Shown: positions 14,911 through 18,318 of the stretch, in pieces
Numbering within the stretch: position 1 is the first letter of the stretch
Layout of the letters: each line of letters starts with the position of its first letter
NCBI RefSeq assembly: GCF_042453785.1
Contig: NC_091671.1
Coordinates: 40,070,501 to 40,134,500, forward strand
From: Malus domestica
Lineage: Eukaryota; Streptophyta; Magnoliopsida; Rosales; Rosaceae
DNA length: 64,000 bases
Reading direction: 5' to 3'
The notes under the pieces: generated by a model
What the model saw: the letters and a program-made list of their open reading frames with translations, nothing else
Told to the model about the DNA's origin: nothing
Database searches by the model: none
Translations under genes and position numbers: made by a program

Positions 14911-15252
14911 ATGGCCAATTCCTCTGCCATTATCTTTTCCTTGGCCTTCGTTGCTGCTTTGATCATCTCCGTTGATGCAAGCGGCGGTCATGGGGCGAGC
15001 TGGGTTCCAGTGAGACCCCGCTGCGAGGGTTCAGTAGCAGAGTGCATGGATGATCATGATGATGTGTTTGGCATGGACTCGGAGATCAGCAGGCGCATCT
15101 TGGCCACCTCACAATACATAAGCTATGGAGCTCTGCAGAGAAACACTGTGCCTTGCTCTCAGAGAGGTGCTTCCTACTACAACTGCAAGCCGGGTGCTCA
15201 GAGCAACCCATACAACCGTGGATGCAGTGCTATTGCTCGTTGCCGGAGTTGA
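14911..15252 (+). CDS. RALF: RALF peptide hormone precursor, 113 aa
   Basis: RALF peptides are secreted, bind CrRLK1L receptors such as FERONIA with LLG co-receptors, and cause apoplast alkalinisation and growth arrest. The intron-less precursor has a signal peptide (about residues 1-23), an acidic propeptide, the dibasic S1P protease site RRIL (61-64), and then a mature peptide of about 49 residues. That peptide opens ATSQYISYGAL, which contains the YISY receptor-binding motif. Four cysteines at 82, 92, 105 and 111 fit the two conserved disulfides. It resembles the Arabidopsis RALF1/RALF33 class. The ATG lies about 50 bases downstream of an AT-rich TATA-like box. The gene looks intact. Confidence 0.96.
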   Translation: MANSSAIIFSLAFVAALIISVDASGGHGASWVPVRPRCEGSVAECMDDHDDVFGMDSEISRRILATSQYISYGALQRNTVPCSQRGASYYNCKPGAQSNPYNRGCSAIARCRS

Positions 15253-15778: not shown

Positions 15779-16847
15779 TTATGCAGAACCTTCATCTTGC
15801 TTCACTTCATCTGCCACTGGCTTGGACTGCTGCATTGGAGACGGAGAGCCCTCCATTCCCATCTCTGTTTTTAGGTCATTGATGCTGCTCTCCAACTCAT
15901 TTATGCGAGAGCCCATCTCGTCAAGTGATCACAGTTAAGGAAACATAACAGAGAATTCATTTAAGCCACTAAAATTATTTAACACAGATTGTAAGGTTTC
16001 AAACCCCATTAAGATCCAACAATCCCAACTCGCAGCCAAAACCAGTCAACATCGATATAGATAGTTTTACGGAATACTGAATTTTAAGGCTTTAATTAAC
16101 CAGTCATATTCATTTAAAGAACCAAACTTTCCAATGTATTAACCTAGCATGGATCAATAAGCGCTTTCGAAATTAAAGAAACTGAGAAAAGGATATTCTT
16201 CGTGACAATGGAGTCGGACATTGTTTGGAACCTAGATTGCTGCAGACAGAAATTTTATCAGTAATCGTCAGTTAGTTGATTCAACCAACATCAACTCAAC
16301 TTGAAGTTACAACTCGAAAAACTCACCATTTGTTGAAGAAGATTTTGCACCTGCGAACAAACAAACCCCGAAAAAACATGATAAGAACACCACAGAAGGC
16401 GAGATTACCAACATAAAATTCTTTTCCGAACAAGAATCGAAACTTGAAAGCTATGAGAACAATTAGGCACTCACAAAAGCAGACATGTCAGCAGTGCTCT
16501 GCTTCGGATCCTCCGAATCATGCCCGTCCTGCAAAGAAAAACAAATTCACAGTAAAATCATACACTTGCACAACCAAAGCGCTCGACAGAGTTGCCCCAA
16601 CGAACCCCAAAGCCACACGCATTTGGGCGAAGTGCAACAACCAGGGAGAAAGACACAAGCTTTTGCGGTGGAAATCAAAAGTAAACAAAATCTGGGCATC
16701 GAAATTTGTAGCTATAAAATTCAAAATTTTGAATTGAATCGAATCGGAGTTGGAAAATTAGGAACCCTAGCGACGAAATTGGGCGAAATTGAACGATTTG
16801 TTTCGAGAAAAATAACGAAATAAAGAACGATGATTTGCAATTACCAT
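15779..16847 (-). CDS. HSBP: heat shock factor-binding protein, 5 coding exons, 89 aa
   Basis: HSBP is a small coiled-coil protein that binds the trimerisation domain of heat shock factors and damps the heat-shock response. The coding exons are 16847-16845 (the ATG alone), 16528-16475, 16350-16327, 16239-16197 and 15924-15779, which together give 89 residues. The core VQNLLQQMQSRFQTMSDSI then KIDEMGSRINELESSINDL is the conserved heptad-repeat helix; an acidic, Gln/Pro-containing tail follows. The first exon ends directly after the start codon. The fourth intron (15925-16196) is not GT-AG: it begins ATATCCTTTT, contains TTCCTTAAC near its end and finishes in AC. With this intron removed the protein is exactly the family sequence, so the gene depends on the minor spliceosome. 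Confidence 0.95.
15925..16196 (-). other. U12-type AT-AC intron of HSBP
   Basis: In the gene's sense the donor reads A|ATATCCTTTT, the branch-point element is TTCCTTAAC, and the acceptor is GATCAC|TTGACGAG, with about ten bases from the branch adenosine to the AC. These match the minor-spliceosome consensus for the 5' site and branch point. The reading frame confirms the borders: AAG A|TT GAC GAG restores K-I-D-E. No GT donor or AG acceptor near these points keeps the frame. Confidence 0.93.
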
Positions 16848-17183: not shown

Positions 17184-17456
17184 CTATGTAAGTTTTTGAA
17201 ACTTCATTTCGTTATTTATGCTCAATTTGACTAATCTGTCAGCTGCAAAATTACGCTCTTTATGAACATGCTGCAAATTACAACTCCAGTTATATATGAT
17301 CAAACTTCTACACTTTGAGACAAAACTATAGAGGGGATGATTATTAAGGCTAGGTAAACCATAACCGAGAGAGACCATCAAAGCAGAATCAATCTTCACA
17401 ACAAGATGAGAGATTTTTCCAGCTTTAGAAATCTTCAACCCATAAAAAAAGCCCAA
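17184..17456 (-). mobile_element. retroelement RNase H-like fragment
   Basis: The translation contains KIDSALMVSLGYG and the ending HVHKERNFAADRLVKLS, the C-terminal part of the plant RVT_3 / RNase H-like domain found at the end of LINE polyproteins (the usual form is RE.N..AD.LA). Catalytic N-terminal residues are absent. It is a truncated remnant at the left edge of a retroelement patch. Confidence 0.75.
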
Positions 17457-17695
17457 AGCTCAGCATAGAGAACTTCCCCAACTCTTTTTTTTTTTTTTTG
17501 CAATAAAACTAGTGATCCAATTACCGTGCCAATCTCTAATTAATCCTCCACTTCCAATTACCCCGTTAGAACCAAGCCTAGCACCATCCACATTTAACTT
17601 AAAGGTCCCAGATGGAGGAGGAACTCAAACCAAGTTAACCTGCACACAATAGTGTCAATCAATCTTGTATAATTAATTCCTCCAATGTCAATGAA

Positions 17696-18318
17696 CAACA
17701 ACAACAACAACAACAACAACAAAGCCTTTTCCCACTAAGTGGGGTCGGCTATATGAATCCTAGAACGCCATTGCGCTCGGTTTTGTGTCATGTCCTCCGT
17801 TAGATCCAAGTACTCTAAGTCTTTTCTTAGAGTCTCTTCCAAAGTTTTCCTAGGTCTTCCTCTACCCCTTCGGCCCTGAACCTCTGTCCCGTAGTCACAT
17901 CTTCGAACCGGAGCGTCAGTCGGCCTTCTTTGCACATGTCCAAATCACCAGAGCCGATTTTCTCTCATCTTTCCTACAATTTCGGCTACTCCTACTTTAC
18001 CTCGGATATCCTCATTCCCAATCTTATCCTTTCTCGTGTGCCCACACATCCCACGAAGCATCCTCATCTCCGCTACACCCATTTTGTGTACGTGTTGATG
18101 CTTCACCACCCAACATTCTCTGCCATACAACATCGCTGGCCTTATTGCCGTCCTATAAAATTTTCCCTTGAGCTTCAATGGCCTACGACGGTCACACAAC
18201 ACGCCGGATGCACTCTTTCCATCCAGCTCGTATTCTATGGTTGAGATCTCCATCTAATTCTCCGTTCTCTTGCAAGATAGATCCTAGGTAACGAAAACGG
18301 TCGCTTTTTGTGATCTTC
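17696..18318 (-). mobile_element. 5'-truncated RTE-type LINE with (TTG)n tail
   Basis: Broken reading frames give FRYLGSILQENGELDGDLNH, then LKGKFYRTAIRPAMLYG, WWFGHVQRRP and GRGRPRKTLEETLRKDLEYL, the C-terminal end of the reverse transcriptase of plant RTE LINEs. The element's 3' end is a (TTG)n run, seen here as CAA repeats at about 17697-17722, which is typical of this clade. Its inner (5') end is cut by LTR sequence at about 18319. Shorter 3' pieces of the same family occur at about 32160-32430 and 54425-54500. Confidence 0.88.

What the first reader, a model, noticed from the sequence alone, without database searches (positions are those of the whole stretch)
15925..16196. Textbook U12-type AT-AC intron in HSBP
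The intron has the minor-spliceosome donor ATATCCTTTT, branch element TTCCTTAAC and an AC acceptor, and splicing at those points restores the exact conserved K-I-D-E reading frame. AT-AC introns are a tiny minority of plant introns and standard GT-AG gene finders would miss this exon border. It lies in a regulator of the heat-shock response, so minor-splicing efficiency could tune HSBP levels.
Basis: partly seen in the sequence, partly recalled or inferred. Interest (0 to 1): 0.72.

Follow-up and report, generated by a model that had tools for sequence, protein, structure and literature searches.

The report
AT-AC intron in plant HSBP gene
A small plant gene of the heat-shock response carries a rare type of intron that the minor spliceosome removes; the intron looks real and is shared by the four copies of the gene found in this genome, but it is an ordinary member of a known class, and a role in tuning the heat response is untested.

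Summary
On the minus strand, AAGA|ATATCCTTTT...TTCCTTAACTGTGATCAC|TTGACGAG, intron 16196-15925 (272 nt, phase 1), joins exons 4 and 5 of an HSBP1-family gene (PF06825, E 8.5e-24) and restores VTK-IDEMGS. The window's own genome (651 Mb, 19 contigs, apple-like by inference) gave four HSBP loci; 4 of 4 hold an AT-AC intron at the same codon and phase with an ATATCCTT donor, and 4 of 4 share 24-nt and 43-nt exons. The two gene pairs differ by dS about 1.1-1.8, so the intron is old. Two U12 snRNA genes pass the Rfam cut-off and carry the complement of the branch element. The two in-frame GT-AG joins found in this copy do not restore KIDE. No transcripts were available, and U6atac, U11 and U4atac searches did not complete. 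That minor splicing tunes HSBP is neither supported nor excluded: a Brassica rapa paper reports heat-altered HSBP splicing but names no intron. Verdict: a U12-type AT-AC intron conserved among paralogues, an ordinary member of a known class.

The parts
16845..16847 (-). start codon ATG, the last three bases of exon 1 (5' UTR exon); inferred
   Evidence: sequence: ATG followed by the donor GTAATTGC; the HSBP frame continues in exon 2
16475..16528 (-). exon 2, 54 nt, AG before and GT after
16327..16350 (-). exon 3, 24-nt microexon (VQNLLQQM), AG before and GT after
16197..16239 (-). exon 4, 43 nt, U2-type AG acceptor upstream, U12-type donor downstream
15925..16196 (-). U12-type AT-AC intron, 272 nt, phase 1
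   Evidence: same intron in 4 of 4 paralogues found
16187..16196 (-). U12-type 5' splice site ATATCCTTTT
15934..15942 (-). U12-type branch element TTCCTTAAC; 8 of 8 pairs with GTAAGGAA of the genome's U12 snRNA genes, one A bulged
15925..15926 (-). AC 3' splice site
15779..15924 (-). exon 5, coding part with stop codon (IDEMGSRI...DEGSA*)

Best explanation
It is the last intron of an HSBP (heat shock factor binding protein) gene and is removed by the minor (U12-dependent) spliceosome: U11 and then U6atac recognise ATATCCTTTT, U12 pairs with TTCCTTAAC and bulges the branch A, and the AC 10 nt downstream is the acceptor. Splicing joins codon AAG-A to TT-GAC (K-I-D-E). Shown: sequence signals, frame, sharing with the three paralogues found, U12 snRNA genes with the matching complement. 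Inferred: that transcripts are spliced there, and the snRNP steps (established knowledge of U12 introns). The intron was present before the older duplication of HSBP and has been inherited since.
For: Exact motifs and frame. HSBP1 family match PF06825, E 8.5e-24, and alignment to human HSBP1 3ci9 across the junction. 4 of 4 HSBP loci found in the genome have AT...AC with ATATCCTT at the same position. Exons 3 and 4 are 24 and 43 nt in 4 of 4; dN/dS about 0.09 and 0.11 within the two young pairs. dS 1.1 to 1.8 between the pairs, saturated and rough. U12 snRNA genes on C1 and C7 above the Rfam cut-off; their complement of the branch element was read. Between C11 and C3 the first 12 bases match 11 of 12 and the last 25 match 24 of 25, against 155 of 209 aligned bases and 65 gap columns in between. 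Phase 1 agrees with the bias of minor introns away from phase 0 (PMC10639083, passages).
Against: No RNA evidence. In the pair C16/C13 the ends are not better conserved than the middle (first bases 11 of 11 aligned with 2 gap columns, last 25 bases 22 of 25, core 400 of 440 with 92 gap columns). C13 has a mismatch in the branch element (7 of 8 pairs). U11, U4atac and U6atac could not be looked for: the tool was busy. One Brassica rapa gene model, BrHSBP1, is reported with only two exons (PMC10499616, passage), so the intron may be lost or missed there.
Confidence: 0.96

Rival explanations
1. A GT-AG intron spliced by the major spliceosome lies in this interval and the AT-AC motifs are incidental.
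For: Two GT-AG joins in C11 keep the downstream MGSRI frame without a stop: donor 10 nt before or 14 nt after the AT donor, acceptor 8 nt after the AC.
Against: They score about -4.6 and -4.9 bits (donor plus acceptor) on a weight matrix of recalled approximate plant frequencies; single GT and AG sites of the same gene score 1.9 to 9.2. The first deletes VTKIDE; the second keeps VTK, adds NILFS and loses IDE. The AT-AC signals recur in 4 of 4 copies.
Confidence: 0.02
2. An AT-AC intron removed by the major spliceosome (the rare U2-type AT-AC kind).
For: Such introns are known in sodium channel genes (PMC2831892, passages).
Against: Those have G at +5 (same passages); this intron has C at +5 within ATATCCTT, as have 4 of 4 copies, and a TTCCTTAAC branch element.
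Confidence: 0.01
3. The U12 intron is a stress-sensitive valve: its slow or heat-sensitive removal sets the level of HSBP and so the length of the heat-shock response. This would come on top of the best explanation, not in its place.
For: Retention puts in-frame stops in 4 of 4 copies. Heat lowered BrHSBP mRNA and altered BrHSBP splicing in Brassica rapa seedlings (PMC10499616, section 3.2 read). U6atac level controls minor introns under stress in human cells (PMC3728624, abstract and one section).
Against: No RNA data here. The Brassica text has no mention of introns or U12, reports a variant that lost 74 nt, which is none of the exon lengths 24, 43, 54 nor 24+43 or 24+54 of this gene, and says that its heat response is in contrast with AtHSBP1 in Arabidopsis. 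The title of PMC10639083 (passages seen) holds that neutral processes may explain much of minor intron evolution.
Confidence: 0.08

Closest known systems
U12-type (minor) AT-AC introns of plants (catalogues U12DB and ERISdb are named in papers seen)
   Same: ATATCCTT donor, TTCCTTAAC branch element, short branch-to-acceptor distance, AC end, phase 1, position kept over an old duplication
   Different: no difference found; the catalogues were not readable here, so whether this very intron or its orthologues are listed is not known
Arabidopsis AtHSBP (At4g15802)
   Same: five exons, class written as 0,0,0,0,2 (PMC10499616, passage); read as GFF phases (my inference) this equals the layout here, with the last intron after the first base of a codon
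   Different: the termini of the Arabidopsis intron are not stated in what I read
Human HSBP1 (PDB 3ci9)
   Same: same coiled-coil protein, IIGRIDDM aligned to IVTKIDEM
   Different: intron position and type in the human gene were not tested

Membership tests
U12-type AT-AC intron | 5' splice site near ATATCCTT | tested here: met
   ATATCCTTTT in the window; ATATCCTT in 4 of 4 copies found
U12-type AT-AC intron | branch element near TTCCTTRAY close to the 3' end | tested here: met
   TTCCTTAAC, branch A 10 nt from the intron end; C3 same, C16 TTCCTTGAC, C13 TTCGTTGAC with one mismatch
U12-type AT-AC intron | ends in AC and its removal restores the frame of a conserved protein | tested here: met
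U12-type AT-AC intron | minor spliceosome RNAs present in the genome | tested here: inconclusive
   U12 snRNA: two genes above the cut-off (44 of 57,210 first-look candidates scored, 0 of 14 control genomes match). U6atac (ten requests), U11 and U4atac did not complete
U12-type AT-AC intron | excision depends on the minor spliceosome | not testable with these tools
   needs RNA from mutants or knock-downs
HSBP1 family (PF06825) | HSBP1 coiled-coil domain above the curated cut-off | tested here: met
   83.6 bits against cut-off 28.6

The most novel reading that the evidence does not exclude
Heat slows removal of the AT-AC intron in HSBP, so that less HSBP is made during heat and the response lasts longer; on recovery splicing resumes and shuts the response off. 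Copies with a weaker branch element (C13) would be the more heat-sensitive ones.
Probability: 0.08. Interest if true: 0.65.

Novelty: new member of a known kind. Interest (0 to 1): 0.15.

Why it matters
A gene finder that allows only GT-AG would miss this exon border and give a truncated or wrong HSBP protein. If excision proved heat-sensitive, HSBP would be a compact case for asking whether minor introns act as stress switches in plants. As it stands it is one more conserved member of a known class; it may already be in catalogues that I could not read.

Tried and rejected
GT-AG alternatives were scored and rejected (its score for the exon 3 donor was off by one base and was redone). The weight matrix used approximate plant frequencies from memory. 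In C16 a GT site at +328 scores 10.2 bits but the sister copy C13 has only 6.0 at the corresponding place (+325); set aside as chance. The global alignment of the C11 and C16 introns (201 of 259 aligned bases) used cheap gaps and is not informative. A candidate exon 1 was seen for C13 (L008 near 2970) but none for C16 in the 5 kb fetched. An Rfam scan of the window at gathering scores found nothing. Papers: the search for U12 + HSBP + intron + plant found 0; the U12 lists (15 of 426 listed; 20 of 27; 40 of 476, with 0 occurrences of HSBP1, empty pericarp2 or At4g15802 in the listed ones; 15 of 363) were seen as listings; HSBP1 + minor spliceosome and heat shock factor binding + U12 gave one human-medicine paper each, by title unrelated and not opened; At4g15802 + splic gave two, both looked into by passages. 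None that I saw names this intron; supplementary tables of the U12 catalogues were not open to me, so absence from print is not claimed.

Full report
What is there. On the minus strand the window holds a gene that I read as five exons: exon 1 ends with the start codon (16847-16845), exon 2 is 16528-16475 (54 nt), exon 3 is 16350-16327 (24 nt), exon 4 is 16239-16197 (43 nt) and exon 5 starts at 15924, its stop codon ending at 15779. The product, 89 residues, matches PF06825 HSBP1 with 83.6 bits, E 8.5e-24, and human HSBP1 of PDB 3ci9, E 6.5e-11. Introns 2 and 3 are GT-AG; intron 1 begins GTAATTGC and ends TTTGCAG.

The intron. Intron 4 runs from 16196 to 15925, 272 nt. It begins ATATCCTTTT and ends TTCCTTAACTGTGATCAC. 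The codon for isoleucine is split after its first base. The protein across the junction, SDSIVTK-IDEMGSRI, aligns to SDQIIGR-IDDMSSRI of human HSBP1. Reading through the intron gives stops in frame in 4 of 4 copies.

Chance. In the window the set of U12 donor, TTCCTTRAY and AC at the right spacing occurs once; 10 of 600 first-order Markov strands (300 simulated windows, both strands) have one or more such sets with ATATCCTTT as donor, 35 of 600 with [AG]TATCCTT and 50 of 600 with [AG]TATCC[TC]T. So a motif search alone would be weak evidence in 64 kb; the fit to the codon and the repetition in paralogues carry the case.

Paralogues. The window is G000:C11:40070501-40134500 of a genome with 651,096,769 bases in 19 contigs. 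A search with the protein gave six matches, which fall in four genes: C11 (the window), C3, C16 and C13; the tool scores only its best candidates, so more copies are not excluded. 4 of 4 have an AT-AC intron at the same codon and phase, of 272, 285, 492 and 554 nt, with ATATCCTT donors. Branch elements are TTCCTTAAC (C11, C3), TTCCTTGAC (C16) and TTCGTTGAC (C13). Exons 3 and 4 are 24 and 43 nt in 4 of 4. C11/C3 differ with dN 0.009 and dS 0.10, C16/C13 with dN 0.019 and dS 0.17; between the pairs dS is 1.1 to 1.8 over 64 codons, near saturation. So the intron is older than the older duplication. Pairs 3/11 and 13/16, and U12 genes on 1 and 7, recall the paired chromosomes of apple; the organism is my inference and comes from no call.

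Conservation within the intron. C11 and C3: first 12 bases 11 of 12 identical, last 25 bases 24 of 25, the rest 155 of 209 aligned with 65 gap columns. C16 and C13: 11 of 11 aligned with 2 gap columns, 22 of 25, and 400 of 440 with 92 gap columns. The first pair shows the constraint expected of splice signals; the second, whose introns are more alike overall, does not.

Machinery. U12 snRNA matches on C1 (89 bits) and C7 (86.7 bits) pass the Rfam cut-off; a third on C14 (40 bits) does not; 44 of 57,210 first-look candidates were scored and 0 of 14 control genomes match. GTAAGGAA, the strand that pairs with the branch element, was found by script in L011 and read by eye as its reverse complement in L009 and L010. 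Pairing counts with one bulged base are 8 of 8 for C11, C3 and C16 (with one G-U pair in C16 if the A is bulged) and 7 of 8 for C13. U6atac, U11 and U4atac did not complete.

Rivals. Two GT-AG joins that keep the downstream frame exist in C11 but are weak and change the conserved residues. A major-spliceosome AT-AC intron would have G at +5 (PMC2831892, passages), which is C here.

Regulation. HSBP of Arabidopsis is described as attenuating the heat-shock response (PMC12582567, passages). In Brassica rapa, heat at 37 C lowered both BrHSBP transcripts and altered their splicing (PMC10499616, section 3.2 read). Against a link to this intron: the text holds no mention of introns or U12, the lost 74 nt fit no exon or neighbouring exon sum seen here, BrHSBP1 is modelled with two exons and BrHSBP1-like with four, and the authors say that the heat response differs from that of AtHSBP1. 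In human cells stress can raise U6atac and minor-intron splicing (PMC3728624, abstract and one section). DROL1 mutants have defects with AT-AC introns in Arabidopsis (as cited in PMC11039992, passages). These make the tuning idea testable, not supported.

Verdict. A U12-type AT-AC intron, clear by sequence and untested by RNA, kept in both members of two gene pairs: ordinary for its class. AT-AC sites are about 0.06% of plant splice sites (PMC6310983, passages), so rare but well known. On checking, the odds of the valve reading were set to 0.08 in both places where they appear, because of the contrary Brassica and Arabidopsis statements.

Noticed in passing
window 14911-15252, + strand; L002 467-808: An open reading frame whose C-terminal part (YISYGALQRNTVPCSQRGASYYNCKPGAQSNPYNRGCSAIARCRS) looks like a RALF peptide precursor (recalled, not searched), next to HSBP; a similar frame lies next to HSBP on C3, so the two genes were probably duplicated together.
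   Followed up: no
window 16327-16350: A 24-nt microexon between GT-AG introns, exactly 24 nt in 4 of 4 HSBP copies found.
   Followed up: partly
L004 (C13 copy), end of the AT-AC intron: The branch element is TTCGTTGAC, a departure from the consensus; this copy may be spliced less well.
   Followed up: partly
L011 (G000:C14:8825316-8825462): A below-cut-off U12 snRNA match (40 bits) that by eye agrees with the U12 genes at its 5' end only; probably a pseudogene.
   Followed up: no
window 17184-18253, - strand: Open frames that look like pieces of a LINE-type retroelement (RNase H-like and reverse transcriptase-like; recalled, not searched), upstream of HSBP.
   Followed up: no
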